A stretch of DNA of 64,000 nucleotides from Neofusicoccum parvum (Eukaryota; Ascomycota; Dothideomycetes; Botryosphaeriales; Botryosphaeriaceae): assembly GCA_020912385.1 (NCBI GenBank), contig CP087211.1, positions 2,480,001 through 2,544,000 of the forward strand, in the 5' to 3' direction. Made by a program: the position numbers and the translations under genes. Numbering within the stretch: the stretch's first letter is position 1; every line of letters starts with the position of its first letter. Under the pieces are notes generated by a model, which was not told the origin of the DNA, did no database searches, and saw only the letters and a list, made by a program, of their open reading frames with translations. Below, one piece after another: positions 24,592-50,485 of this stretch.

Positions 24592-24707
24592 CACGGAAGC
24601 GGTGATGCGAAGCGGGGCGTATCGCCCGAGCGGCCGAGTTGGCGACTCATCCGCTCCTGCCCCAGATCTCCGCCATCGTTGACAAATGAGACGGACTGGC
24701 TTTCAAA

Positions 24708-24714
24708 TATAAAA
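24708..24714 (+). promoter_or_regulatory. TATA box for the plus-strand dioxygenase
   Basis: TATAAAA about 75-80 bases before the ATG at 24789, a good core-promoter position. Confidence 0.6.
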
Positions 24715-24788
24715 GCCCCTCAACGGGTCCATCGAGCTCATACGTAAAGACGTCCATTTCCAGAAAAGTCCATTATACACCTTCAAAC

Positions 24789-25961
24789 ATGGGCAGCCTT
24801 GCAACATTTTCCGTGAAGGCACTTCCGAAATCGACCATCTCCGACGTTGACTTTGGAGCTGAGGTACTGGGAGTCGACGTTGAGAACCTTACCGGTAAGA
24901 CTCCAAAAGCACAACAACTACCAAATACTCACATTGGTCGTTTTTCCACTGTAGATGATGCATTTGCCTTTCTTCGCACCGCTCTCTACACGCACAATGT
25001 TGTCCTCATCAAAGGACAGAACAGCCTTTCTCCGAAAGCTCAGTACGAGCTGACTCGCCGCTTCGACCCGGCTGCCGACACATACAGCCATGGAAAATCA
25101 ATCGACAAGCGCAGTATCCTTCACGCCGACCTCAAGACCATTCCGCACCAGCCACAAGTCCAGGTCATTGGCAGCGGCTTTGTCAAATCATATGAAGGCC
25201 TCGAAAATATTACCCTTGTTCATCCCCACCATCGCAAGTTTCACCGTGACCCCATTCCGGAGGAGGAGGACCATGACTACACACACTTCTACCGCTGGCA
25301 TATTGACTCGGCGATGTATGAACTCGACCCCCCGCGGGTCACATCGTTAGCCGCAGTCCAAGTGCCGCAAGGACGCCGCCAGATCTGCCGGTATGATGAT
25401 GGCTCTGGGGAGGAGCTGGATGTTCCACTCGGGACAACTGCGTTCATCAGCGGCTACAGGATGTACGAGCTACTCTCGGAAGAGGACAAGGAGTTCGTTC
25501 GCACGAGCGAGATCGAATACGGTCCCCATCCGTACATCTGGATGAGCGAGGCGCGGTCCCGCCCCAACGGCCTTGGCCTCTTCTCCGAGGGACGTGAATT
25601 GCCGGATGATCGGCTTCCTCCGGTGGATCCAGGGAAGATTAGGCGGTATCCAATGGTATGGAAAAATCCGCTTACCGGAAATCTGGCATTGATGGTGTAC
25701 CCGACCCCTGCGCGGAGGATCTGGCGCATGGATGGTTCCGTGATTGAGGATTTGGAGGCGGTGAGGGCTACCGTATACAGGCTGCAGAGGCAAGGTATAA
25801 GCCCGAGGTTTGTCTATCCGCATGATTGGCAGGAGGGAGACCTCATTCTCTTCAATAATCATGGCGTGATGCACTCTATCGTCGGATCTTTCAGGGAAGA
25901 TGAGGTCAGAATTTTCAAGCAGTGCAACATGGCTGCAAGCAGCGCTCCTGCTGGGCCATAG
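24789..25961 (+). CDS. XanA-like 2-oxoglutarate-dependent xanthine dioxygenase
   Basis: Predicted to hydroxylate xanthine to uric acid using Fe(II), 2-oxoglutarate and O2, the fungal alternative to xanthine dehydrogenase in purine use. The ORF is open throughout, but 24895-24954 looks like a 60-base in-frame intron (GTAAGA donor, TAG acceptor). Removing it joins ENLTDDAFAF in line with the family and gives 370 residues, the length I recall for Aspergillus nidulans XanA. Iron ligands are H and D in YRWHIDSAMY and the H of GVMHSIVG. The C-terminal RIFKQCNMA keeps the Arg, Gln and Asn reported for co-substrate and purine contact. A close homologue with a different purine-like substrate is possible. 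Confidence 0.85.
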   Translation: MGSLATFSVKALPKSTISDVDFGAEVLGVDVENLTGKTPKAQQLPNTHIGRFSTVDDAFAFLRTALYTHNVVLIKGQNSLSPKAQYELTRRFDPAADTYSHGKSIDKRSILHADLKTIPHQPQVQVIGSGFVKSYEGLENITLVHPHHRKFHRDPIPEEEDHDYTHFYRWHIDSAMYELDPPRVTSLAAVQVPQGRRQICRYDDGSGEELDVPLGTTAFISGYRMYELLSEEDKEFVRTSEIEYGPHPYIWMSEARSRPNGLGLFSEGRELPDDRLPPVDPGKIRRYPMVWKNPLTGNLALMVYPTPARRIWRMDGSVIEDLEAVRATVYRLQRQGISPRFVYPHDWQEGDLILFNNHGVMHSIVGSFREDEVRIFKQCNMAASSAPAGP

Positions 25962-36007: not shown

Positions 36008-37933
36008 CTATAACTTGGCGCCTAGTTCTTTCGTGGCGCGTTCTCGTAGGATTCTCTTAAGAATCTTTCCACTCGGGCTTTTTGGAATTTCTTGTAGAAA
36101 AACAACACCTCCTTCTAACCTTTTGTACGATGCAAGTCTCTCTTCTACGTAAGCTCTCACCTCTTTCTCCGTCAATTTCTCTCCTTCTTTCCCCGGACGC
36201 CTAACTACATATGCACGGGGTAGCTCGGAGCCGCTCTTGGTCGGCGTAACACCAATTACGGCTGCGTCAATGATTTGTGGATGGCTGGTAAGAACACCTT
36301 CGAGCTCTGGCGGTGCAACTTGGAAGCCACGAACTTTGATAAGCTCCTGGGCAGTATAGTCGGATTAGCTGAGATGTTGCGAGAATCGTACAAGTTGAGA
36401 CAATCGTAGGATTGTAGATGCCAAACAACTGCCACGGCGCTTACCTTCTTCCGGTCAACGATAAACCATTTCTTCGTCCTCTCACTGCAGTGGACTATGT
36501 CGCCCGTACGGAAGTACCCTTCATTATCGAAATCATTGTTGTTTGCGTCCGGCTGATTCCAGTACCCCATGAAGACAATTGGACCACGAACGCACAACTC
36601 ACCACGAACGTCGTAGCCTGTGATATCGTCCCCTTTCTCATCAATGATCTTCAGATCAAGGTTCGGCATTGGGTATCCAACGCTCCCCTCATCGTCGTCT
36701 TCCGGGTACCGTATGCCCATGGCTTGGCAAGTCATCTCCGTCATTCCCCATGTCCTGAAGTAAGAAAAGAGGAGGCTTAGCTCAGGCTCAATGCAACGAT
36801 GGATCCACTCTTCTCGGAGATACTTACTGCGTCACTGGAGTTCCCGGTAGTAGAAGTGTCTTCATTCTGGCAAGTGTCCCTTTATCCAGAGGTGCTGCTG
36901 CCGTCAGACCGTACTTGACGCTTGCCAGACTGTATTTCCTCGCAGCCGGTGTCTCGAGAATTGCCCTGATCATTGGAGGCGCTCCAACAAGTTCATTGAT
37001 TTGATACCTCTCCATATTCAACATGTACGTCTCAAGGTCAAACCTTTTCATCATGTAGAGAGGGGATCTTATCTTCAACGATGCGAAGTGCACGTTCGGC
37101 ACCATTCCTGCATGAAACAGCGGCATAATGATAAGTCTCCGGACCTGTTCCACGGAAGAGTCAGCTGAAGGCCTTATAGGGGAACTGTTATCCAGACTGA
37201 CTTCAAATGGACGCTTCTCGATGGTCAAGTGGTGCTGAGCGATGATATTGTGGTGCGAGATTCTCGCTGCCTTCGGCAACCCAGTGGTTCCGCTGCTGAA
37301 AAGTCTCACAGCCTCCGTGGCTTTCGCCTGCTTAAGACCCTCGAAGCGCTCCCAATCACTTTCGCCGTTCTTCAGTAGATTTCTCCAGCTTGCGATTCCC
37401 TCTGCGAGCTTCTCGTCACTTGTGCGGTCGAACGCCCAGATTCTCGAGACCGGCAGATTCGTCTCTGCTGCCGCAGTCAAGACGTTTGCCAAAAGACCAG
37501 GCTCAGCGATGAAGGCTGAGATGCTGCCGACGCGGATGGCATGGGCGATTTCGTGGGAGGTGTAAGCAGGGTTGGTGCCTGAGAAAATGCCACCAAATGC
37601 GATGATCCCATTGACAATTATCGGATAGTCAATCTACGCAGGCGGTCTCATTAGAAAGAATATGCCTTGGGAAGTGGCAATGATGTTCAGGGAGTCGCTC
37701 ACGCTATTAAAAGTATGCATGCAAACCACGTCACCTTTCTTCAGGCCTGCAGCCTTGAATCCGGCGCAAAGCTTACGTATCACATCTTTCGATTGTCGAG
37801 CCGAGTATGACTGTGAAGGGTCGGCTGCATCAATGTAGATGGGTTTGTCAATGTCGACCTCGGCCTCTTCGTAACACCACGACAGGATGTCTTTGGCAGG
37901 GATGTCCACATGTTGCGTGGCGAGAAAAGGCAT
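36008..37933 (-). CDS. Acyl-CoA ligase (4-coumarate-CoA-ligase-like) with peroxisomal AKL tail
   Basis: Adenylate-forming enzyme that would activate a carboxylic acid with ATP and load it on CoA. Exons: 37933-37703, 37633-36828, 36754-36445, 36346-36008, giving 561 residues. ANL motifs in order: FSSGTTGLPKAARISHHN, YGLTAAAPLDKG, QTWGMTEMT (joined by splicing), GYFRTGD, RKKELIKVRGFQVAPPELE and the catalytic Lys in SPSGKILKR. The protein ends AKL, a type 1 peroxisomal targeting signal. It is divergent from the thioesterase gene, which also ends AKL, with a 435-base promoter between. It is the left member of the isocyanide cluster and probably activates a fatty or aryl acid; substrate unknown. 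Confidence 0.9.
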
Positions 37934-38368
37934 CGTGATTGTGGTGCTGACCGGGAATGCTCGGACAGAGTTCTAGATCGGCGAGGCCTTTATACGCGTA
38001 TTCGCATTTCTGAGACCGGAAGTACATTCAGATCACAGCCAGCATGCAGACTGCCGAAAAACTCCGCTGTCGGGTATTGGTGAAACATAGATTGATCTCG
38101 AATCGCTTCTTTTCGGGCTGCGAGCGAACTTATCAGCGAAAAGCAGTGGTCGGCATTTTCCTACCTTCGCTCCACGACTTGCTGGACATAACTAGCCAAT
38201 TGTGTGATTGGTTTTCGGTGATGCGAATACGGAGCTTCGTCTTTTCAACATTTTGTTCATTGGAGGCAGTGTTGTGCGAATCCTCAGTCTCTCCCTTCGT
38301 TACATACTGCCGGCTGTGGAGCTGCCCAATCCCAACCCGGTGCTCGCCCTGCGTCAATTGGCTGCTTG
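37934..38368. promoter_or_regulatory. Divergent promoter of the ligase and thioesterase genes
   Basis: 435 bases between opposite start codons. An ORF at 38044-38445 on the plus strand overlaps the thioesterase start and matches nothing. Shared control of the two peroxisomal enzymes is likely. Confidence 0.5.
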
Positions 38369-39107
38369 ATGCCTTCCCACGCAAATTTCAAGACGCGTCT
38401 CGATGCCTCGTCTTACCACGCTCCTGGCGGCGGCAAAGCATATGACTCCCTTCGTGCTGCCATCGTGTCGCAAGCAACTGCCATGGGATGCGACACGGCC
38501 ACGATGACCGAGCATGGAGTCACGTGGGCGGATGACCAAGACCCATTCGGCCACATCAAGTTCCACGCCTTCCCGCACTTCTCTGCGGTGACCAACGTCC
38601 GGCTCTTCGAAAGCTTCGAGCAGCAGTTGGGCGACAAGTGCGATGATCTGTTGAAGGCAAGGGGCATCGGTGTTATTGGAAAGAATTTGAATGTGGAGTT
38701 CAAGCGACCCGTATCGTATCCCGACGCGGTGAGTCTTATTTATCTCGATTCATTTCAGGCAGCAGTAATGAAGTCAGAACATTTCTTGCTGGTCGATTCC
38801 GATTGCCGCTAATTTCCCATGTATGCAGATTCTTGTGGCTCTCCGAATCACAGAAGTGAAGCCGGACCGGTACTGCGTTACAACATCAATGTGGTCGATG
38901 CGTGACCAGGCTCTTGTTGCAGAGATTTCGGGGTGTGTTGTGTTCTTCGACTATCGTACCGCTAAAGTAGCCAACTTAATTCAGGCTGGAGGTGTTTACC
39001 GCGACCTCTACAACGCTCTCAGTGCAAAGGCGGAGCGAAGCAATGCTCTCTTTCAGAAGTGGAAGCAAGACGACCTGGAAAAGAAGAAGAGCAACGCAAA
39101 ACTGTAG
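38369..39107 (+). CDS. Hot-dog-fold thioesterase with peroxisomal AKL tail
   Basis: Acyl-CoA thioesterase of the 4HBT type. Exons: 38369-38728 and 38829-39107, giving 212 residues. The usual catalytic start of these enzymes is seen in TWADDQDPFGHIKFHAF (Asp then GH), followed by a helix (LFESFEQQL) and strands VEFKRPVSYPDA and RYCVTTSMWSMRDQALVAEI. The chain ends NAKL, a PTS1 signal matching that of the divergent CoA ligase. Its stop lies 101 bases from the stop of the convergent A-T-R gene, showing a tight cluster. It could release or proofread the acyl group made by the ligase. Confidence 0.85.
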
Positions 39108-39208
39108 CTAGAATCACTGCAGGTGGCCTGAATGAGTAGATGATCAATCGAATCTTGATATTGTTGCCATTCTGGTGAAGAAAGTGATCCCTGCGTTTGG
39201 TTCACTAA

Positions 39209-42200
39209 CTAAATCCAATGCCTCAGCCACTTCTTCAATAAGGCTTCATCCACCGGTCGTGATTCTGCAAGGCTCTTGCTGTACTTTACAGTCTTTTGTA
39301 TGTCTACAACTGGAAATAAGCCAGCCATGGACTCGTAAAAGCCGATTAGCTTCAAGCCAGGTTTAATTTCCACCTGTTCCCTGGTGAGCGGTACTCTTTT
39401 CAACGCCGCGACCCAGTCATCAAACGCCACCGCTTCTAGTACTATCCCTTGCTCCCGGCGGTAGAGTTCTTGGATGACGGGTACCAAGCCCCTCCACGAG
39501 CCAGTCTTCGGATTGATGATATGAAAGACGTCTGGAGACTGTGCTTCAGACCGTCCTACATTGCTTAGGGTGCACTCCACGATAGCCTGAGCGGCTGAAT
39601 CCACCGGCAGCCAGTCAATGTCATCAGTGTCTCCAAGGCTAAGAGGTATAGCGCCCATGCTTGCCGATGTTAGCACCAACGAAGGGAACCATTCTTGCCG
39701 GTTCCAACAGCCTTCATGGTACTGAGGACCGGCAATCTGGCCGCAACGGAATATCGAGACGGGAACCTCCACCGCTGCCGCTGCCCCGAGAATTCTTTCA
39801 GCAACATACTTGGACGCGCCATATCCCTGATTCGCGGCTGCGGAGGGTCTCTCGACGATAGCTTCAGGAACGATACCGCTGTAGCCTGCTACGGATGCGA
39901 TAGATGAAATGAATGAGATATGACACCTATGCTTCGACTGGAGGCTAAAATCAACGACATGGCGCGTACCAGTGATGTGAGTGGGCACAAAAGATTCCAG
40001 GGAATGGTTGAAGTTAACGGCCCACGCGTTGTGGATGAAGATGGTGGCTGAGAAAACCAGCTCATCGTAAGCTTCTAAAGAAAGACCAAAGCGTGGAAGG
40101 CTGAAATCGGCGTGCAGAAAAGAGACTTTACTCAGTTCGGCATGAATACCGCGTTCAGCAAAACTCTGCTTCTGTCGTCTGCCAGCGTCCTCAGATCTGT
40201 TAAGGCAGTAAACCTTTTGAACCTGGTCAGACTCGATGAGCTTCTCGAGAATATAGCTTCCCAAAGATCCAGTAGATCCGGTAAGGATAGCTGTATGGAG
40301 TTCTGGGGGATCTGCGAGAGATACGCTTGCTCCGGCGAGGCCAGCCGTGTACTTCTCAACAAGATGAAGAATGAGACTCTCTCGCTCACGTGGCTCTACA
40401 TCGTGTTCGTCACTCGTCAGCTTCCGATGAATTGAGGAAGCAAGTGTGTTGATGGTAGGGTTCGTGTAGATGTCAGCAACAGGTACAACGACCTGGTTAC
40501 CCTCGAATGTAAGGCCGTTTCGGAGAAGCTTCGATAGTGCCAAGACGTTTTGAGAGTCCATTTTCAACTTGAAAAGGTCATCGTCATCGGAGTGGATTTC
40601 TGGAAGATCCCCGAGCAAAAGCCTGAGAGCCTGACGCAGATAATTACGCAGCTCTGTGAGGTTGGCCTTCACGTCTAGCTTGCCAAGCTGCACACTCAGT
40701 TGCTGGTCTACTCGATTTGGAGAATACAGAGCTTCAATCTCGGGTGCGTATAAGTCCAGAGTAGCACGCTTTGCGATTGAGTGCTTTGCGGTACGTGCAA
40801 ACGGCTTGTCTTTGTTTGCAAAGGCGATCATGCTCTTCTCGATCCGAGCATGGGTAGAGCTCGGCTTATTTGCCATCTCCACGATGGGCCAGACATGTTC
40901 CAGGAAAGAGAGCTGGTCGGTAGGAATCCTTCCTTCGTCAACTTCGACGATCAACCCTGGCTGGAATCGATCATGGCCAACGACAATGGCACCTGTGACG
41001 AAAGGGTGATCCTCGACCGTCTTTTCGAACATGATCGGATCGAACTTGAGTCCATTGCTGAGCACAAGAAGGTCATCGCGGCGACACTTGAACCGCCATA
41101 AACCCGTCTTTGCCGGATGCTCTTCAAATAGGTCATTGGTTCTCCACTCGGATATTCCTGGAAAATTGTAGAAAACAGGTTGTTGACGGAGGTCTCCGAG
41201 AGGTCTGATAATCATTTCAGCCAAGTTGTCTTCAACATGCTCCATGGTCACACCAGCGTATGGGTGAAACTCGAAATAGTCCCAATCGGCGCGGTCGAGA
41301 GGCGCAAGAGCAGGTAGGCAACATGTCTCAACGGACCCGATAATAGAGCTAAGACGAGTAACGCTATTGATCAGATTACCTGCAGATCTGGACAGAGGAG
41401 CACCGCCGTAGAAGACCTCGTCCAGAGTAGAAAGTGCTTGAAGTCCACGTGTGGTTGCGCTCAAATCCGCGATAATCGATGGAGGAAACATCCCGCAGGT
41501 AGCGAATCCCCGCTCAATAGCCTCCATAACAATTTCCGCGCTGATTGGGAGTCCAGCTGGGAGTACAACCAACGGACCGGTAAAAATGCTGCGTAGGTAT
41601 AGAAGAAGGGCCATGCCGTGGTACATAGGCGCAGAGGTAATTAGGGCCTTGCCGTCTGTACTCGGGCCAAGCCAACCTTCAGATCTATTGCGGCGGCCAG
41701 GTGGTGGAACCAAATGCTTTTGTCGTAGAAGATTCGATATCCAGACGTTGTCCACGTATATTGGTTTGGGTACTCCAGTGCTCCCTGAGGAGTGCATCAC
41801 GACGACTTTCTCTTCCAAACTAACCCCGCCGTAACACGGAAAGGGCCCCGGTCCTTGTTCACCAAGAGCAATCATCTCCTGGAGTGTAGGCACTTGGAAA
41901 CCGTAAAACTCGTCCGGCCGGGCTCTGAAAACTTCCAGGTTCGAAGTGACTCCCTCAGTATAGAGGTAGCGGGTGCAGTCTGTTGTCCGCATAATATGAA
42001 TTTGGGCTAAGTTTGAATTCCGCCGTGAAAGGATGAGGGCCTAGGTGTAAAGCAATTAGTGCGGTACTAAACTACCTGGTAAAGTATACCCACCCGGTGG
42101 TTTGTTTTCATAAGAGCAAACATGATGATCCCATATCGAACATCGTGGAGACTGGGTGATAATTCAGCAAGTGAAGACTGGGAGAAGGATGGGCGCGCTC

Positions 42201-42480
42201 ACCCCAAGTATCCAACGGTCTCACGTTGACTTTCCGGGATTCCAATGGTTTTCTCGACCCATCGCGATGCACCGTCGACTGCTTTTGCCAGTTCAGCAAA
42301 ATCGATCGTCCGCCATTTGCCTTTCACATCTGATGTTTCAGGCACTACCATCCATGGTCGGTGCGGCGACGCTGTGGCAATTTGATCAATGAGATATGGA
42401 AGATGAGCGTGATCAATGTTTGTAGGGAATTCCATGGTTCTTTCGGTCGTTGTTGAATCCTGAACTGAATTCGTCGCCAT
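39209..42480 (-). CDS. NRPS-like A-T-R enzyme (carboxylic acid reductase architecture)
   Basis: Would adenylate a carboxylic or amino acid, tether it to a phosphopantetheine carrier, and release it as aldehyde or alcohol with NADPH. Exons: 42480-42203, 42151-42094, 42040-39209, giving 1055 residues, normal for the class; an in-frame ATG at 42498 is an alternative start. Adenylation motifs are MHSSGSTGVPKP, SVETCCLPAL and CRRDDLLVLSNG. The thiolation site is LKMDSQNVLALSKLL, with Ser kept but Lys where Gly is usual. The thioester-reductase domain has LTGSTGSLGSYILEKL and YGASKYVAERIL. No condensation domain. It lies between thioesterase and isocyanide synthase genes; it may take an isocyanide amino acid or supply a partner. 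Confidence 0.9.
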
Positions 42481-42970
42481 GTACGTATACATAATCACCT
42501 AGTTTGCTGCGGTTATAAGCATGCGAAGAGAAACATATCATAACCGCTTGATGACCCCCATACTCGCTAAACATGTCTTGAAGTGATGTAGATCAGCGAG
42601 ACAAGATTCGGTGGTTCTGACCAAGTGGATCAGCGGACCGATATTTTCCACAAAAGCCGATCAAGCAAGTCCTAGAGGAACAGGTTCGGTCTCCAACCTT
42701 CGCAAATTTTCGCTTCCGTGCCGTTCGGAAGTCTTCGCTCCCACGGTCCTCGCAGAGTGTCGGTCTAGCTAGTAGATACGCAACTATGCCGATTTCGCTA
42801 ACGGTACGAATCGTGGAATTACAGTCGCAGTAAACATACAAGGTACGTTAAGTAAGACGTGTTAGAATTTTGAACAAAGAATCTCATAGACTGCCTCTCC
42901 GAGGCTTCATCGCCTTTGAATAGAACGCCTCTCGTTTCCATCTTCTTGTATCATTCAAGATCTAATCTAA
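42481..42970. promoter_or_regulatory. Promoter of the A-T-R gene and 3' region of isocyanide synthase 1
   Basis: 490 bases between two minus-strand genes; no further gene seen. Confidence 0.45.
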
Positions 42971-44035
42971 CTACCTTTCGCTCCTTTCCTTGAAAAAATA
43001 CGGCTGTCCGTCTTGTTCCACAAGATCATACTCTTGAGAAAACTCCTTGGCATATCCACTGCGGATTTCACCATTTGCCATGACCAAAATGCAGCAGTTC
43101 CAGGGGTTCATCCTAGAGAAGGCTTTTCCCGAAAGAAGTGGAATGTAGATTTTCTTTTGTCCGGTAGACAGGTGAATAGAGAGGCGTATGCTGTTAGCGA
43201 ACTTTTCATATAGTAAGCGTTCGTATGCCTGGGTAAATCAGTGAAAGAAGCTGTCTTTTTACACTTGTAGCAACTTACAATAAGACGCTTGACCATGCAT
43301 TCTGCAAGTTTTTTGACTTCCTGATTATACCTCCGCTCATCTTGAAGGAGATTCTTATCGAAATCATCCCGCCAAGGCATGTCCTTTGCAAGTAATGCAA
43401 CGAAGCTTTGGTAAGTGAGCATTGTATCTTCGTTTCCATCAATCTCATTTTCGATGTTGATGTGCGGATTGAGAAATGTCTCAAGTTGTTTGCGAAGGTA
43501 TGGAACCGCGGTTAGATAGGCATCTCTTGACGTTGTGGGCCCCGATTCCTGGCTGAGGATTTCAGGTACGCGAAGAAACGTAATATAACGAAACCTCTTT
43601 CGTGCGGCTAGGCTGCGTAAGCTCTCGCCATATTGGAAAGAATCTGAATCAGCTACACCCATCAAGTCTCTCTGAGCGTCAGCACGCAGATCATTTTATC
43701 GGTCCGCTTAGCCGCTTACCTCCATACACAAGCCCATCAGAAACGATGGAGATCCGGGCACCGTATTCGTATACCTGACTAATTTCCGAGCAGAGGCGGT
43801 CAAGGCGGGCCAATGCCAGCTCCTCCCCGAGATCTGGGAGTGGGCCCAACGTTTTGTCTCTGTTTGGGTTTTTCAGGGGGAACGCCGGCAGGACGAGGAG
43901 GATCGGAGTTTTGTCCGCGATTTGTTTGGTAATTTTCTGGCAGACCTGCTGCCACGCAGCTTTCTGGACGTCATGTTCTTCCTGATACGAGAACCTTTTG
44001 ATAATTTGGACCATTTGCCCGGCTACGGAACACAT
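42971..44035 (-). CDS. Isocyanide synthase, DIT1/PvcA family (copy 1, short form)
   Basis: PvcA-type enzymes convert the amino group of an amino acid to an isocyanide using ribulose-5-phosphate as carbon donor; Dit1 of yeast is a relative. Exons: 44035-43720, 43667-43279, 43228-42971, giving 320 residues. Family signatures are [26 protein letters not shown] and SIVSDGLVYG, then IRLSIHLSTGQKKIYIPL and NPWNCC. Compared with the neighbouring copy it lacks about 43 residues at the N-terminus and about 45 at the C-terminus, stopping just after FFKERSER. It may be a natural short form or a partly degraded copy. It is divergent from copy 2 across a 450-base promoter. Confidence 0.88.
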
Positions 44036-44485
44036 CGTATCTTAACGTAGGAGATGACCTGTATTATTGGGGTCAGCCTTGCTGGAGCCTCGAAGGACGG
44101 AGAGCAGTGAAGAGTTCTGGCGCCCTTTTCTTGAGATCATGACGAAGGAAAATGAAGAAACAAGGAACTTGTGCCGAAATAAAAACATACAGGTGACGGC
44201 CAACATTGTACTACGTAGGTAGGTGAAGGGCTAAAATGTGGCGGCCATGTGGAGCTATTGTCTAAGACTTTATGCGAGCAATAGATCACACTGTTGGCGC
44301 CTAAATCGTCCGTCGGCCGCGGTTCTTAATACCGATCACAACTCACGGAATTTTTCGGTAGATGACTGAGATGATGTCGTGCCCCAGTGCTTCCGATCTC
44401 TTCGGAAGAACTCGCACACGGTAGGAATAAATACAACGATGATAAATAACATCGACCACGCTCGCATAAGCAAGCGCATAGCACG
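44036..44485. promoter_or_regulatory. Bidirectional promoter between the two isocyanide synthases
   Basis: 450-base region between head-to-head start codons. It contains a perfect 7-base inverted repeat, listed separately, and an AT-rich block just before copy 2. No exact copy of the copper-starvation element I remember for MacA (TGTGCTCA) is present. Confidence 0.6.
44390..44408. promoter_or_regulatory. Inverted repeat CTTCCGA-N5-TCGGAAG
   Basis: Perfect 7-base arms around a 5-base spacer, placing CCG and CGG triplets 7 bases apart. It lies 78 bases before copy 2 and about 355 bases before copy 1. Candidate Zn2Cys6 site; binding not shown. Confidence 0.5.
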
Positions 44486-45843
44486 ATGGCATCCACCATG
44501 GCTCTAAGTCAAGCAAATATTCTTTCTCCCCAGTCTCTTGTTCATGTGCGGGACTCTTACTCTAGTCGAGGTGGCGAGAAGGCGTCTTCTTTCGTCAACA
44601 ACTCTTCTAGCGAGACCACGCTCAAGGTCCTTCATATTTTGGGGAAATACTCCACGGGTGAAAGCAGTAATGATGCTGCTGCAACAGTCTCGGCCTTCTT
44701 CCATCTGGTTATGAGGCATGTTGAAGCGAGGCGACCTATACCAATGGTGTTACCGGCATTCCCGTACAAGAGTCTGAACCGACTTGACAAAGTGCTCGGC
44801 GTTGAGCCTGACCTGGGCGAGGAACTTGCTCTTGCAAGGCTTGAGAACCTCTGTCGAGACATTAGGAAAATCTACACCCCGGGCGCGAGTGTTGCAATTG
44901 TCAATGACGGACTCGGCTACAATGGTAAGGTCAATGCCTGTTTCTAATCGTGCGAGCTCTTGGCTGACCTTAAAATCTAGACATCACTTGGATACAAGAT
45001 GAGGACGTCTGGATATACGAATCCTTGCTCCGGGATATGGCTGTCCGTGAAGGCTTCTCAAGCTTGAGATTCCATAGCATGATCAGCGTCCTCGATCTGT
45101 GCGACGAGTCGCAAATCACCAGAGATGTCTTTCTTCAGCTCTGCGAACCCACAAGACAATGTCTCGTATCAAAATACGGAGATTTAGATTTTGACGTCGA
45201 AAAACTTCTCGAAACCAATCAAGACTACCTTATGACGTACCGTGGATACGTAAAGTTCTTCGAGAAGGAGCTGGAACATCGACCTGAGATCAAAAAGGAG
45301 CCTGTCAAACGACGACAGAGAGCAATCGTCAAAGGGATTGCCAAGAGGCTTATTGAGCGCGGATTCGTAAGTCAATTTTAGCGTCTCGTCCAATGTGTCT
45401 ACCTAACAAAATTGCGTCAGACGTTCGCGAAAGTAATTCGCGAAAGGTTCCCCGAGCACGTCCGGTTGTCCATTCATCCATCTTCTGGGAAAGAGAAAAT
45501 ATACATTCCTTTGATCCCACAGGAATCGTTCTCTATGACCCCATGGCATGCAACTGTTGCTGTCGACGTTCGTGGCAACTTTAAGATAGCTCATGTGGCG
45601 GAATTTCGCGCGAGTCACGACCTCGTCATGAAAGATGGAAAGCCTGCTTTCTTCAGAGAAAGGTCTCCCCTGTTTAAGTGGAGTATAGAAGTTGAATTTA
45701 CCCATCGCTACGGAAGGTCTCTTCTAATAACGAGGCGCAACCCCGGCAAGTCGCTCATGAGTGTTTCGGATCAGGCGAAACTCATGACGCTGGCAATGAC
45801 GCACAAGGTGGTGGAGCTGAAGGGATTTGACTCGGATGCGTAG
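44486..45843 (+). CDS. Isocyanide synthase, DIT1/PvcA family (copy 2, full form)
   Basis: Predicted to install an isocyanide on an amino acid substrate with ribulose-5-phosphate. Exons: 44486-44924, 44981-45366, 45421-45843, giving 415 residues. Signatures parallel copy 1: [38 protein letters not shown], then [18 protein letters not shown] and [10 protein letters not shown]. The C-terminus continues past [11 protein letters not shown] to a complete end. No oxygenase or NRPS domain is fused, unlike several known fungal isocyanide synthases. Copies 1 and 2 are clearly diverged, so they may act on different amino acids or form a pair. Confidence 0.9.
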
Positions 45844-46242
45844 TATTGCACTATAGTTGTTTGAATCATTCCATTATAATGCATTTCCATCGTTACTATT
45901 TGTCTTTAGTCATTACGACGTCTAAGGCCAGTGAATATAAGGGTATTTCTTATGAACAACGTAGGATAACAGTGTCCTCGACGCTTTTGAGGTTCGTCAT
46001 GGTTATCGGCATTGAGATAACGGACTTACCCAATGTCCGAACATGGTATGAGTCGTGCTTAACTTAGACTATCGCTGAACGTCGGAGTTCTTCGGACTTT
46101 GAACGATGAAGGTACGATATTAAGGGCGCAAGTTGAGGATAGTGGACGCCATTCAGAAAGTATTAAAGTACGGTTAACGGACCTTTCTTGGACAAATATC
46201 CCATTCCTAAAAGAGATTCAACAATATTTACTACTTTGCACG
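45844..46242. other. Intergenic region before the BAHD gene
   Basis: About 400 bases carrying the promoter of the BAHD gene. The frame is open back to 46099 but has no ATG before 46243. Confidence 0.5.
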
Positions 46243-47801
46243 ATGCCATCCTTCAGAGTCGGGAAACAGGACGTTCTTCACGTTCGTCCACAGGGATACG
46301 AGAATCACGACCCCGAGGAGATCTTCGAGCTCTGCGACCTAGACCACACTTTACCAAAGATCTATAGTGTTCTTACTGTGCGTCGGAAACATCATATTAC
46401 CACTTTAAAATCTTAGCTATCACTAACGCTTCGCAGTTGACATACCAGCTCGATGAATCCATCGACCGGATCGCACTCGCGGCCCAGCTCAAAGATGGCT
46501 TGGAAGTAACTCTGAGCCAATATCGGATTCTTGCAGGCGAGCTTGCTACTGAATCCGCCACTGGGAAAATGTGGGTCAAGAAAAAAAGAGACAACACAGT
46601 CCGCTTCATTCTCAACTGGCTCAATGAGCCAGAGGACGACACGTTCCCCACTTTTGAGGAACTGAGGTGCACCGGTTTCCCTCCAGTCAAGATGGATGGT
46701 GATCTTCTTCTTCCAACGGTGGTGACTCAAAAGCAGCCGCTGACGCCGATGGGCGACCACCGAGAGGATCAGACACCAATCCTTGTGGTTCAAGCGAATT
46801 TCATTCGCGGCGGTGTGATCATGGCTGCTGCAATCTACCATCCCACGACAGACGGTAAGCACAAATTTGAGGCTAGATGCGGCACATAGTAATCGATATC
46901 CATAGCCACCGGTGTTGACGGTTTCTGGGCAAGCTGGTCCGCCAACACGAAGGCCCTGGCGAACGGGCTACCTCTCCCACCTTTCGTCGACACCATCTTC
47001 CAAAACAAGTCCCTAATCTCCCAAGCGACCCCGGCCACCGCTCAGACCAGTATCGCCCAACACTCTCTCCAGCTCAACAAGACCCCACCGACTCCCTCAC
47101 CCGGCTTTAAGATGCCAGCGCTCCGCCCCGTCTTGCTCCACTTCCCCGCAACGCGCATCGCCCAGCTCAAGGTCGATGCCCGTCCCCACAAGCCCGGCGC
47201 CTGGATATCGACCTATGATGGCATCATGGCGCTGATTTGGCGTGCTATGGCGCGCTGCCGGCTGGACTTACTCAAACCCGACCCCATCTCCTCGTCCCAC
47301 CTGCTGCACTGTGCTGGCGTGCGGAAATCTATGAATCTCCCCACCCACTTTTTTGGCAACGCCATGACAATGCCCAAGACGGGGCTTCCAGTTGCAAGAC
47401 TTGTCGCGCCGGACATGCTACCAGAGGTCGCAGGCCTAGTACGGGCCTCGATCGAGGAGTATAAGACGGCCGAAATGGCGCGAGACTTCTGCGACTGGGT
47501 CGCGAAAGCTGAACAAAGATCATGGATCGGCATCAAGCTGAACTCTTTTCTGGGCATGGACACGGTGGCCACCTCGATAGGCACGATGACAGTTTATGAT
47601 GTCGCGGATTTCGGGTTTGGGCTACCGAAGGCGCTGCGTAGGCCGAAGCCAACTGTAGATGGCTATGTTATTGTGTATCCGCGTAGGCCAACGGAAATTC
47701 CTAATGAGGGTATCGAGGTTTGTGTGTGCTTAGAGGTGGGCTGCATGGAGAGGATGTTAAAAGACCCTGAGTTGATATCCTACGCAGAGTTACGGTGTTA
47801 A
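46243..47801 (+). CDS. BAHD-family acyltransferase
   Basis: Transfers an acyl group from a CoA donor to an alcohol or amine; fungal relatives include trichothecene 3-O-acetyltransferase-type enzymes and the C-terminal transferase of isocyanide synthase/NRPS-like fusions such as CrmA. Exons: 46243-46377, 46437-46854, 46906-47801, giving 482 residues. The catalytic HxxxD is IYHPTTDATGVDGFW, restored by the second splice. The structural DFGxG motif is VADFGFGLPKAL. WISTYDGIMALIWRAMARCR and FFGNAM are further family blocks. It is the right edge of the cluster and would esterify the alcohol or amine released by the reductase or synthases; the acyl donor may come from the CoA ligase. Confidence 0.9.
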
Positions 47802-49238
47802 CATGTATTGAATAGAGGAAGAATTATTGATACTATGAACTGAGAAGTGGAATATGTACTTATTGTGATACAACTAGGTCTCCAACCCGTGGTAGACATC
47901 TATTATTTCTGGCATGGTCTCGTCATATATTAGTGTGGTAGGTTCTTGTGATAAGCATGTCCATAGGAAAAGTAAAGGGCCATCTCCGGGATCCCCTTCA
48001 AAGCGTAGTTCTTTTAAATTCCTCTCGAGGTCTGGCTCGGCCGTTATAGACCGAGGACTAGATCCGGAGCGCGGTAAGTCTCAGTTGGCTCTACTGTCTA
48101 GCTGGAAAATGTCTATCTAAAAGAGCGTACTCTTAGGCTCGCTCAAGTAGTTTAAGCCTAACGCAGGCTTGCGTAAGTGGCCTAAGTCCAACGTAGGCTC
48201 GTTTAAGAGACTTTGCATAATGGACATGGTTTGGGCCGGGCTGGCCAGCACTTCAATTCACTCACTTACCCATCCCCAAGTGATTGAAGTGCCAAGACTT
48301 ACCTTATCGGCCGAATTGAGTAAGTAAAAGTGGTCAATTTAGCCTCCTAAATGATTAAAGTAACAAAAAGTAAGTAACGAAAATATCGTAAGTGTAACGG
48401 CGGGCCTCTGCCTCTAAGGATCCAAACACCAAAGAGGGTGGTAAGCCGTGTTTAGGGGTTTACCTTGAGTGGGTACAAGAGAGGGTGAGAGAGAATGAGG
48501 TGACGAATACACGTGACTGAGCACTGCGTGCGAAGGCCTTGTTACCAATAGAGTCCAAATTCTATTGTGCAAGTCGGGTTGCGAAGTTGACCACGAAGGT
48601 CAAAGCTATGCTAATGAGTGTGGTTTATATACGTAGGAGAGTCTATACAATCTGATAGTTCATGGGTTCATTCCGCCAAGCGGTTGAATGTCTGAACTCC
48701 TGCGGGTCAGGAGTTCAGAGTGCCAAGGCTTCGAACGGCTGAACCGGGAGTCACGTGACTTCCCGCCGGTGGATCTTCTTTTGCGGGCGCGTAGGCGCCC
48801 CGCTTGTCCTTCCTTTCCTTCTACCCAGGTTCTGTGTAGGCTGCGCCGTAACATGAACAAACTGGCAACTCTTCTCCCGGACTGTAACCGGCCCGCACTA
48901 TTAGCACCCTCGTACGGGGGAAAAACTGTCACGACTCAAGAAGAACAAGTCAGATTCTCGAAATTGACTAAAGTTTCTAAGCTAAAGAAAAGAAAAAGAA
49001 AAGGAAAGGAATAGGGGAGGAAGAGGGGAGTTTATATACATGGTCCAGGTGCTAGTCAAAAGTTAAACGGCCGGGCCTAGGCTTCCCTTTCTAGTACGTT
49101 CTGGCCAAGTGTCTTCCCTCAGTAAACAGGCCACGGTTCGGCGTTCCTAGTCCAAAGTCGAAGCTTCTCCTCCCTTCACCTCCCTGTTACCTGGAGAATG
49201 AGATGTTGACGGTCTAAATCGTCACAAAAACCGAGACC
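47802..49238. other. Repeat-bearing region right of the cluster
   Basis: No supported gene. It contains degenerate tandem units at 48.13-48.21 kb and sequence leading into the LINE relic. An ORF at 48688-49014 shows no family. Confidence 0.45.
48131..48210. repeat. Three degenerate tandem units of about 20-30 bases
   Basis: Variants of CCTAACGCAGGCTTGCGTAAG recur, partly in mirror order (TTAGGCTCGCTCAAG, CCTAACGCAGGCTTGCG, CCAACGTAGGCTCG). Origin unknown, perhaps part of the adjacent retroelement. Confidence 0.45.
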
Positions 49239-50485
49239 ATGAGAAACACTCCCCAGCTAGGAGATATCCTCCTGTTTACAGATGGCTCCCAGAATGCAAT
49301 AGGATCAATGGGATACGGATTTATCGGCTATCAAGGCCACAGGATAATCCTTAAAGGAAACGGAAGTCTAGGTAACGCCACAGAAGTCTACGATGCCGAA
49401 GTTATAGCAATCGAGCGAGCTTTGGAAAGGCTCCTTACCAAGCCTGAGACTAGTATTGCAACGAACGTCCATATCTACACAGACAATAGTACAGCAGCCA
49501 AGGCCCTTGACGGACAGCCAACAGACTCGAGCCAAGGCATGATCCTAAGAATCCGTCTACTAGCTAAACAATGGCCGCATAGACAGCGCCCAATCTACAT
49601 CCAACCCGGCTCAGTCCAGATCCACTGGATCCCCAGCCACAAAGGCATCCGAGGCAACGAAGAGGCGGATCAATTAGCTAAACAAGGTGCAGCGCAGCCC
49701 TCACCACCAACAACAGCAACGCTTGCCAAGATTAGCAGGATGGCGAGGGCAAAGGAGCACGAGCTCTTTGAAGAATGGTGGAAGACTAATATACCGGAAT
49801 CCTACCAAAGCCTTAGCATCGCGCTATCAAAGGGCCCCCCTCTAGAGCTAAGTCTCTCAAGAAGGACACTTGGCCACCTCATCGCAGCAAGAACTGGACA
49901 CGGCGACTTCAAAGCCTACCATGAATGGCTCAACCATACGGACGCGGATCTTAGCTGCAGCTGCGGACAACCTAAGAGTCCGTCCCACCTATTCTCGTGC
50001 AGGATCTCTAGAAGACGATTTAAAGGGCAACTAGGACTCTCGCCAAGCGAGATACTCGGCACCCCAAAGGGAGCATTACTATACGCTAAGTACGTGGAAG
50101 AGACAGGCCACTTTCGGGAGACCTGCCCCACGCACCAGAGAGCCCTGCCGCCACCGGTGCAGGAAATAGAACAACAATAGCTTAAAGCACAGAAACACTC
50201 CCCCACCCTATCTTACTCACCCACTCTCTCTACTCCTACCGTAACATTCAGATACTTCAGGCAGATGCCCCACACCTCTAGAGCAGCAGCCCACCAGGCT
50301 AGCTGTGACGTATGACATCAGAGACGTATGTCCCAGATAGGCCACCTAGATAGCCGACGGCTGCCTAGCAGCTGGCCCGTCCTATGCCCCCAGGGAGGCT
50401 CTAGGGCACGTGGAAGCTCTAATTAGGGACAGCCACGAACCCGCCGGACGTTAAATAGTCAATCAAATCAAATCAAATCAAATCA
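49239..50485 (+). mobile_element. 3' end of a Tad-like LINE retrotransposon (RNase H and zinc knuckle)
   Basis: A 313-residue opening (49239-50180) encodes the C-terminal part of a LINE ORF2. RNase H catalytic residues are all present: D in FTDGS, E in YDAEVIAIE, D in YTDNSTA and the H/D of PSHKGIRGNEEAD. A terminal zinc knuckle (CSCGQPKSPSHLFSC) follows. Reverse transcriptase and endonuclease are absent, so this is a 5'-truncated copy. It ends in five AATCA units (50461-50485), the simple-repeat tail typical of this group. Confidence 0.8.
50461..50485 (+). repeat. (AATCA)5 LINE tail
   Basis: Five exact AATCA units closing the first LINE fragment. Confidence 0.85.

What the first reader, a model, noticed from the sequence alone, without database searches (positions are those of the whole stretch)
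36008..47801. Compact six-gene cluster that looks like an undescribed isocyanide pathway built from separate enzymes
Seen: CoA ligase, thioesterase, A-T-R NRPS-like enzyme, two DIT1/PvcA isocyanide synthases and a BAHD acyltransferase within 11.8 kb, with short gaps and two divergent promoters. Known: fungal isocyanide synthases are often fused to NRPS-like and transferase parts (CrmA) or oxygenase parts (xanthocillin type); bacterial isonitrile lipopeptide clusters combine an acyl ligase, thioesterase, A-T-R NRPS and a different isonitrile-forming enzyme. Inference: here the parts are split, and the ligase/thioesterase/reductase set parallels the bacterial design but with PvcA-type synthases, so the product may be an acylated or reduced isocyanide with metal-binding ability.
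Basis: partly seen in the sequence, partly recalled or inferred. Interest (0 to 1): 0.88.

Follow-up and report, generated by a model that had tools for sequence, protein, structure and literature searches.

The report
Fungal isocyanide cluster with paired synthases
A Neofusicoccum fungus carries a small gene cluster in which two different isocyanide-making enzymes sit beside an acid-activating A-T-R enzyme, and a second copy of this three-gene core elsewhere in the genome suggests it is a real working unit whose product is still unknown.

Summary
In detail: six intact, intron-containing genes lie at 36008-47801 (CoA ligase, 4HBT thioesterase, A-T-R, two DIT1/PvcA proteins, BAHD acyltransferase). 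The genome is a Neofusicoccum close to N. parvum/N. ribis. The reading needs revising. The unit that recurs is three genes, not six. A paralogous locus on contig C1 has the same order and orientation, A-T-R(-) ICS1(-) | ICS2(+), with no match to the other three genes in the 40 kb compared. ICS1 and ICS2 fall in two separate well-supported clades, and one of each is kept at three loci, with broken relatives at a fourth. The two ICS-linked A-T-Rs share their A domain (66%) far more than their R domain (55%), as expected if they activate the same acid. Against simple acid reduction: the window's A-T-R has Leu where the reductase NcCAR needs Glu433 (PMC5826065). The thioesterase occurs in many fungi without an ICS1-type hit. 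Two-ICS families (GCF 1) and an unfused ICS beside an NRPS (GCF 8) are in print (PMC10153163). Verdict: new variant of a known kind; product and expression untested.

The parts
36008..37933 (-). CoA ligase (4CL-like, ANL family), 542 aa after removal of the 57-nt intron 37201-37145; exons 37933-37703, 37633-37202, 37144-36828, 36754-36445, 36346-36008
   Evidence: 98.7% identical to N. parvum P0080
37934..38368 (.). divergent promoter, CoA ligase | thioesterase; no TTCGGA motif
38369..39107 (+). hotdog-fold thioesterase (4HBT_2), 212 aa; exons 38369-38728, 38829-39107; candidate acid residues D56/D58 in DDQDPFGH
39209..42435 (-). A-T-R enzyme (fungal carboxylate-reductase architecture), 1040 aa; exons 42435-42203, 42151-42094, 42040-39209
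41048..41050 (-). codon CTC for Leu428, the position of NcCAR Glu433 (essential there)
   Evidence: PMC5826065
42436..42970 (.). A-T-R promoter; one TTCGGA (42724)
42971..44035 (-). ICS1, short single-domain DIT1/PvcA isocyanide synthase, 320 aa; exons 44035-43720, 43667-43279, 43228-42971
44036..44485 (.). divergent promoter ICS1 | ICS2; one TTCGGA (44401) within an imperfect palindrome 44378-44420
44486..45843 (+). ICS2, DIT1/PvcA isocyanide synthase with C-terminal tail ending in LKGFDSDA, 415 aa; exons 44486-44924, 44981-45366, 45421-45843
45844..46242 (.). BAHD promoter; TCCGAA (46036) and TTCGGA (46091)
46243..47801 (+). BAHD / trichothecene-3-O-acetyltransferase-like acyltransferase, 482 aa; exons 46243-46377, 46437-46854, 46906-47801; HxxxD = H180..D184, DFGFG from D419

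Best explanation
This is an isocyanide-synthase (ICS) cluster of Neofusicoccum with a three-gene core, A-T-R + ICS1 + ICS2, and at least one likely accessory gene (BAHD); the CoA ligase and thioesterase are attached less surely. Most likely mechanism (inferred): ICS1 and ICS2, as a conserved non-identical pair, convert amino-acid amino groups to isocyanides with ribulose-5-phosphate, giving alpha-isocyano acid(s). The A-T-R adenylates the isocyano acid, loads it on its phosphopantetheine and either reduces it to aldehyde/alcohol or, if Leu428 has crippled the reductive cycle, only holds it as a thioester. The BAHD enzyme then makes an ester with an acyl-CoA that the CoA ligase may supply, the thioesterase trimming wrong or surplus acyl-CoA. 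Shown: intact genes, domains, most catalytic residues, recurrence of the core, domain-specific conservation of the A domain. Inferred: every chemical step, the substrates, the product, and membership of ligase, thioesterase and BAHD.
For: Same block A-T-R(-) ICS1(-) | ICS2(+) at C1, 59.5%, 56% and 62% identical. Separate ICS1-type (100/100) and ICS2-type (99/97) clades, one of each at C1, C5 and C6, the spliced models having no internal stop. Of 54 columns conserved in at least 80% of 20 other ICS sequences, ICS1 keeps 52 and ICS2 50. The Macrophomina ICS1 relative is modelled as a PvcA/PIsnA fold over 307-314 alignment columns of 320 residues. A-domain identity C6-C1 is 66.2% against a mean of 50.7% to the two A-T-Rs without ICS; R domain 54.6% against 52.6%; difference of excess 13.5 points, bootstrap 95% interval 7.5-19.7. 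No ICS match beside the C14 and C16 A-T-Rs in the 30 kb and 13 kb read. BAHD keeps HxxxD. Weak lead: TTCGGA occurs 4 times in the A-T-R, ICS and BAHD promoters against 0.93 expected (Poisson 0.015; 0.036 if all four promoters are counted), none in the ligase | thioesterase promoter; chosen after looking at many motifs.
Against: A-T-R Leu428 replaces the Glu essential in NcCAR; C1, C14 and C16 keep Glu. No match to ligase, thioesterase or BAHD in 40 kb around the C1 copy. In N. ribis the thioesterase (249-kb contig) and ICS1 (19-kb contig) are on different contigs, from an assembly break or true separation. Ligase and thioesterase have broad distributions of their own. The ICS pair on C5 has no A-T-R match in 30 kb, so the pair can do without it. 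No expression, mutant or metabolite data. The C1 ICS promoter has no TTCGGA.
Confidence: 0.5

Rival explanations
1. Composite neighbourhood: only A-T-R, ICS1 and ICS2 are one pathway; CoA ligase, thioesterase and BAHD are ordinary neighbours.
For: C1 repeats only the three-gene core, beside a P450, a transcription-factor-domain protein and an amine oxidase instead. The thioesterase is found in many fungi without an ICS1-type hit. N. ribis contigs differ. No TTCGGA in the ligase | thioesterase promoter.
Against: Six metabolic enzymes packed in 11.8 kb with gaps of about 0.1-0.54 kb. The ten flanking frames scanned include a GH62 enzyme, an RNase H frame, a Zn-cluster protein and a stand-alone TauD dioxygenase about 10 kb away, with no obvious continuation of a pathway next to the six.
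Confidence: 0.27
2. The A-T-R no longer reduces; it is an adenylating loader (or inactive), so the product is an unreduced isocyano acid, ester or amide.
For: Leu428 at the position of NcCAR Glu433, whose Ala variant is inactive. By eye, C6 and C1 also have GSVET where C14 and C16 have GSTEA, i.e. Val at what I take to be NcCAR T336, a residue whose loss lowers activity there.
Against: H238, S593, Y837 and K841 are kept, as is TGxxGxxG at 684. Other ANL enzymes carry non-Glu residues at this place by eye (the window's CoA ligase has F in RGFQVAP), so Leu may be tolerated.
Confidence: 0.18
3. One reading: all six genes form one pathway analogous to bacterial isonitrile lipopeptides, with ligase, thioesterase and A-T-R as the lipid-handling set.
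For: The enzyme classes are all present.
Against: No condensation domain, no free acyl carrier protein and no Fe/2OG enzyme among the six. The A-T-R goes with the ICS pair and not with ligase and thioesterase at C1.
Confidence: 0.08

Closest known systems
Fungal ICS gene-cluster family GCF 1 (Nickles et al., PMC10153163; abstract, sections 18, 20, 21, 31 and passages read)
   Same: Two single-domain ICS proteins in one cluster, forming two clades from an old duplication.
   Different: The text read does not list the other GCF 1 genes (figures and supplements not held), so whether an A-T-R belongs is unknown. Here a defined A-T-R/ICS1/ICS2 block is duplicated within one genome.
crm cluster / CrmA (PMC9381783; abstract, sections 6 and 13 read)
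   Same: ICS joined in function to adenylation and thiolation domains; a predicted alcohol-O-acetyltransferase gene in the cluster (crmB).
   Different: CrmA is one fused protein with a transferase domain; here ICS, A-T-R and BAHD are separate proteins, with a reductase domain and two ICSs.
Fusarium GCF 8 (PMC10153163)
   Same: Single-domain ICS beside an unfused NRPS gene.
   Different: Its NRPS has the crm-type domain, and most of the ICS clusters with both NRPS-like and terpene synthase genes are of this family; the text names one ICS backbone, not a pair.
xan / xanthocillin and ICS-TauD fusions (PMC5974471 passages; PMC10153163)
   Same: PvcA-type ICS chemistry. ICS2 and the C5 copies end near the LxGF where TauD begins in fusions, so they look like fusions that lost TauD.
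   Different: No TauD domain on either ICS and no P450 among the six genes.
Fungal carboxylate reductases, NcCAR type (PMC5826065 passages and section 21; PMC9605436 passages; PMC10168641 search listing only)
   Same: A-T-R architecture; the R domain matches 8aep (E 2.3e-78), which I recall to be NcCAR; 4 of 5 essential residues kept.
   Different: Essential Glu433 is Leu428; genomic partner is an ICS pair.
Bacterial isonitrile lipopeptide clusters, ScoA-E type (composition recalled; PMC7949033 search listing only)
   Same: Ligase, thioesterase and a reductase-ending enzyme beside an isonitrile-forming enzyme.
   Different: Different isonitrile chemistry, and no condensation domain or free carrier protein here.

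Membership tests
DIT1/PvcA isocyanide synthase | PF05141 over the curated cut-off | tested here: met
   ICS1 258.1 and ICS2 272.7 bits against 26.4
DIT1/PvcA isocyanide synthase | Conserved residues retained | tested here: met
   54 columns conserved in at least 80% of 20 other sequences: ICS1 keeps 52, ICS2 50
DIT1/PvcA isocyanide synthase | PvcA fold | tested here: met
   Tested on the Macrophomina ICS1 relative P0002, not the window protein: mean pLDDT 85.2; 3e59, 9dh4, 9dhm best, TM 0.76-0.79 by query; both window proteins match 3e59 by sequence
DIT1/PvcA isocyanide synthase | Isocyanide formation | not testable with these tools
   needs enzyme assay
Fungal carboxylate reductase (CAR) | A-T-R domain order | tested here: met
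Fungal carboxylate reductase (CAR) | NcCAR essential residues H237, S595, Y844, K848 | tested here: met
   H238, S593, Y837, K841, placed by motif, no NcCAR sequence at hand
Fungal carboxylate reductase (CAR) | NcCAR essential residue E433 | tested here: not met
   Leu428; Glu in C1, C14, C16. Not filed as a proven CAR.
CrmA-type ICS-NRPS | ICS fused to A and T domains | tested here: not met
   separate genes
ICS-TauD / xan type | TauD domain on the ICS protein | tested here: not met
   tail stops where TauD would begin
GCF 1 of PMC10153163 | Two single-domain ICS proteins in the cluster | tested here: met
GCF 1 of PMC10153163 | Remaining core genes of GCF 1 | not testable with these tools
   shown only in figures/supplements that are not held
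BAHD acyltransferase | HxxxD and DFGWG motifs | tested here: met
   H180..D184; DFGFG variant at 419; best PDB match trichothecene 3-O-acetyltransferase 2zba
Bacterial isonitrile lipopeptide cluster | Fe/2OG isonitrile-forming enzyme and condensation domain | tested here: not met
   absent from the six proteins

The most novel reading that the evidence does not exclude
ICS1 and ICS2 are an obligate hetero-pair: two PvcA-type subunits that divided labour (two amino acids, or one catalytic and one helper) before the loci duplicated. The A-T-R is their dedicated acceptor, so the core makes and joins two different isocyano acids into a mixed di-isocyanide ester, a fungal bidentate copper ligand made by a route unlike xanthocillin, crm or the bacterial lipopeptides.
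Probability: 0.15. Interest if true: 0.8.

Novelty: new variant of a known kind. Interest (0 to 1): 0.5.

Why it matters
Fungal isocyanides bind copper and act as antimicrobials, yet few pathways are solved. A core that occurs twice in one genome, with a specifically conserved A domain and one synthase of each type at three loci, gives a small system in which to ask why fungi keep two isocyanide synthases side by side and what happens to the isocyano acid after it is made.

Tried and rejected
Ligase/thioesterase/A-T-R as one module: rejected on the C1 copy and on distributions. ICS1 as a truncated, dead copy: not supported; its relative matches PvcA over nearly the whole length and its conserved residues are kept. 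Recent duplication of the CoA ligase from the mating-type-linked C3 copy: not supported (55.7% identity, no closer than to Botryosphaeria, 55.2%, or Saccharata, 56.4%). Promoter motifs recalled for copper regulators and XanC: none in the four window promoters; one TGTGCTCA in the C1 A-T-R promoter; one bZIP-like TTAGTCA in the BAHD promoter. A shared 10-mer, one mismatch allowed, in all four window promoters: none. Gene order in other fungi could not be read, as no fungal genome collection is held. All three searches of the large protein collection were used for ICS1, thioesterase and CoA ligase, so A-T-R, ICS2 and BAHD were compared outside this genome only with Pfam and the PDB. Paper searches listed no description of this cluster; only open-licence papers are held, so this is weak evidence of absence. 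A first count of five TTCGGA motifs was wrong; the recount gives four.
Full report
OBSERVATION. The window lies at G000:C6:2480001-2544000 of a 44-Mb assembly in 18 contigs. ICS1 is identical at 211 of 213 residues, 67% of its length, to Neofusicoccum ribis SLS56_011962. The CoA ligase is 98.7% identical to an N. parvum protein and the C1 copy of ICS1 is 240/240 identical to another, so the genome is a Neofusicoccum of the N. parvum/N. ribis group; I did not settle the species. Hand-made splice models for the six genes are intact. One intron of 57 nt in the CoA ligase was missed at first and is supplied by the N. parvum protein. Pfam confirms all six classes.

THE CORE. A genome-wide search with the A-T-R finds its closest relative on contig C1, directly beside a divergent ICS pair that one search had already listed. 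tblastn and spliced alignment show the order A-T-R(-), ICS1(-), ICS2(+) at both loci, with identities of 59.5% (A-T-R), 56% (ICS1) and 62% (ICS2). CoA ligase, thioesterase and BAHD match nothing at E 1e-4 in the eight stretches compared. Their nearest relatives elsewhere in the genome are on C3 (ligase, near a mating-type gene) and C10 (BAHD), and for the thioesterase none was found. Beside the C1 core lie a P450, a fungal transcription-factor-domain protein and an amine oxidase.

TWO DIFFERENT SYNTHASES. In a maximum-likelihood tree of 22 ICS proteins, C6 ICS1, C1 ICS1, a Macrophomina protein and one C5 protein form a clade (100/100); C6 ICS2, C1 ICS2 and the other C5 protein form another (99/97). 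Whether the two clades are sisters is not resolved. The simplest reading is that the pair existed before the loci multiplied; one of each type is kept at C1, C5 and C6, with no internal stop in the C1 and C5 models or the window genes. Contig C18 holds broken relatives: by score one leans to ICS1 and two to ICS2; they were left out of the tree. The A-T-R accompanies the pair at C1 and C6; at C5 no A-T-R match was found in the 30 kb compared. Both window ICS proteins match PvcA of known structure, and the model of the Macrophomina ICS1 relative matches PvcA and PIsnA over 307-314 alignment columns, so the short ICS1 type looks like a complete PvcA-type enzyme. ICS2 and the C5 copies have a tail that aligns to fungal ICS-TauD fusions and stops near the LxGF where TauD begins. 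This fits the proposal in PMC10153163 that single-domain ICSs came from fusions by loss; the tail reading is mine.

WHY THE A-T-R BELONGS. I compared four A-T-Rs of this genome: two beside ICS pairs (C6, C1) and two without ICS in the stretches read (C14 in 30 kb, C16 in 13 kb to the contig end). The ICS-linked pair share 66.2% of A-domain positions against a mean of 50.7% to the other two, and 70.3% against 44.0% in residues 220-360, which I take from the motifs to be the substrate-binding half. In the R domain the figures are 54.6% and 52.6%. The excess in A over R is 13.5 points (bootstrap 95% interval 7.5-19.7). A shared substrate is the simplest reason, and the ICS product is the obvious candidate because the only other shared genes found are the two ICSs. 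This is inference.

RESULTS AGAINST. PMC5826065 (passages and section 21 read) reports that NcCAR loses all activity when H237, E433, S595, Y844 or K848 becomes Ala. The window enzyme has H238, L428, S593, Y837 and K841; the C1, C14 and C16 enzymes have all five residues (placed by motif). The Leu codon is CTC at 41050-41048. Reduction by the window enzyme is therefore doubtful, and I do not file it as a proven carboxylate reductase. The thioesterase search gave 57 proteins, among them many at 47-62% identity in Stachybotrys, Hypoxylon, Xylaria, Colletotrichum and Mycena. The ICS1 search gave 22 proteins, with Xylaria only as an ICS-TauD fusion at 34% that falls outside the ICS1 clade. These searches need shared five-residue words, so misses are possible. 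In N. ribis the thioesterase and ICS1 lie on contigs of 249 kb and 19 kb. The Neofusicoccum thioesterase also departs from its relatives in a motif (GHIKFHAF where the nearest have GHIMNAGF), so its activity is open. The TTCGGA motif (4 in 1384 bp of the A-T-R, ICS and BAHD promoters; 0.93 expected; Poisson 0.015, or 0.036 over all four promoters; none in the ligase | thioesterase promoter) was picked after looking at many motifs and is only a lead.

COMPARISON. PMC10153163 (abstract, sections 18, 20, 21, 31 and passages read) describes GCF 1 with two ICSs and GCF 8 with an ICS beside an NRPS. PMC9381783 (abstract, sections 6, 13) describes CrmA, a fused ICS-A-T-transferase. PMC9605436 (passages) groups 84 fungal A-T-R enzymes by substrate, and the word isocyanide was not found in its main text. 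Of the 9 papers listed (at least 4 of 6 terms), none holds 'isocyanide synthase' together with 'carboxylate reductase' or 'A-T-R'. [quoted passage not shown] I found no description of the A-T-R/ICS1/ICS2 core in the listings.

VERDICT. A real ICS cluster whose repeated unit is three genes; a new variant of a known kind. The six-gene pathway, the reduction step and metal binding remain hypotheses.

Noticed in passing
G000 contigs C1, C2, C5, C6, C7, C15, C17, C18: 27 exon-level DIT1/PvcA matches over eight contigs, including three ICS1/ICS2 pairs without internal stops and broken copies on C18: an ICS-rich genome (not compared with others here).
   Followed up: partly
L029 (C3:2946001-2956000): A CoA-ligase paralog (55.7% identical) lies about 2.6 kb from a mating-type alpha-1 HMG-box gene.
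   Followed up: partly
window 49218-50177: An RNase H frame, probably of a retroelement, lies about 1.4 kb to the right of the cluster.
   Followed up: no
window 38369-39107: The Neofusicoccum thioesterase has GHIKFHAF where its nearest relatives have GHIMNAGF.
   Followed up: partly
window 24690-25958: Stand-alone TauD-family dioxygenase about 10 kb left of the cluster; no link to the ICS genes shown.
   Followed up: no
C14:1785770-1789020 and C16:1310744-1314078: Two further A-T-Rs of the same subfamily (53% and 46% identical) without ICS in the stretches read; the C16 one ends within 1 kb of its contig end.
   Followed up: partly
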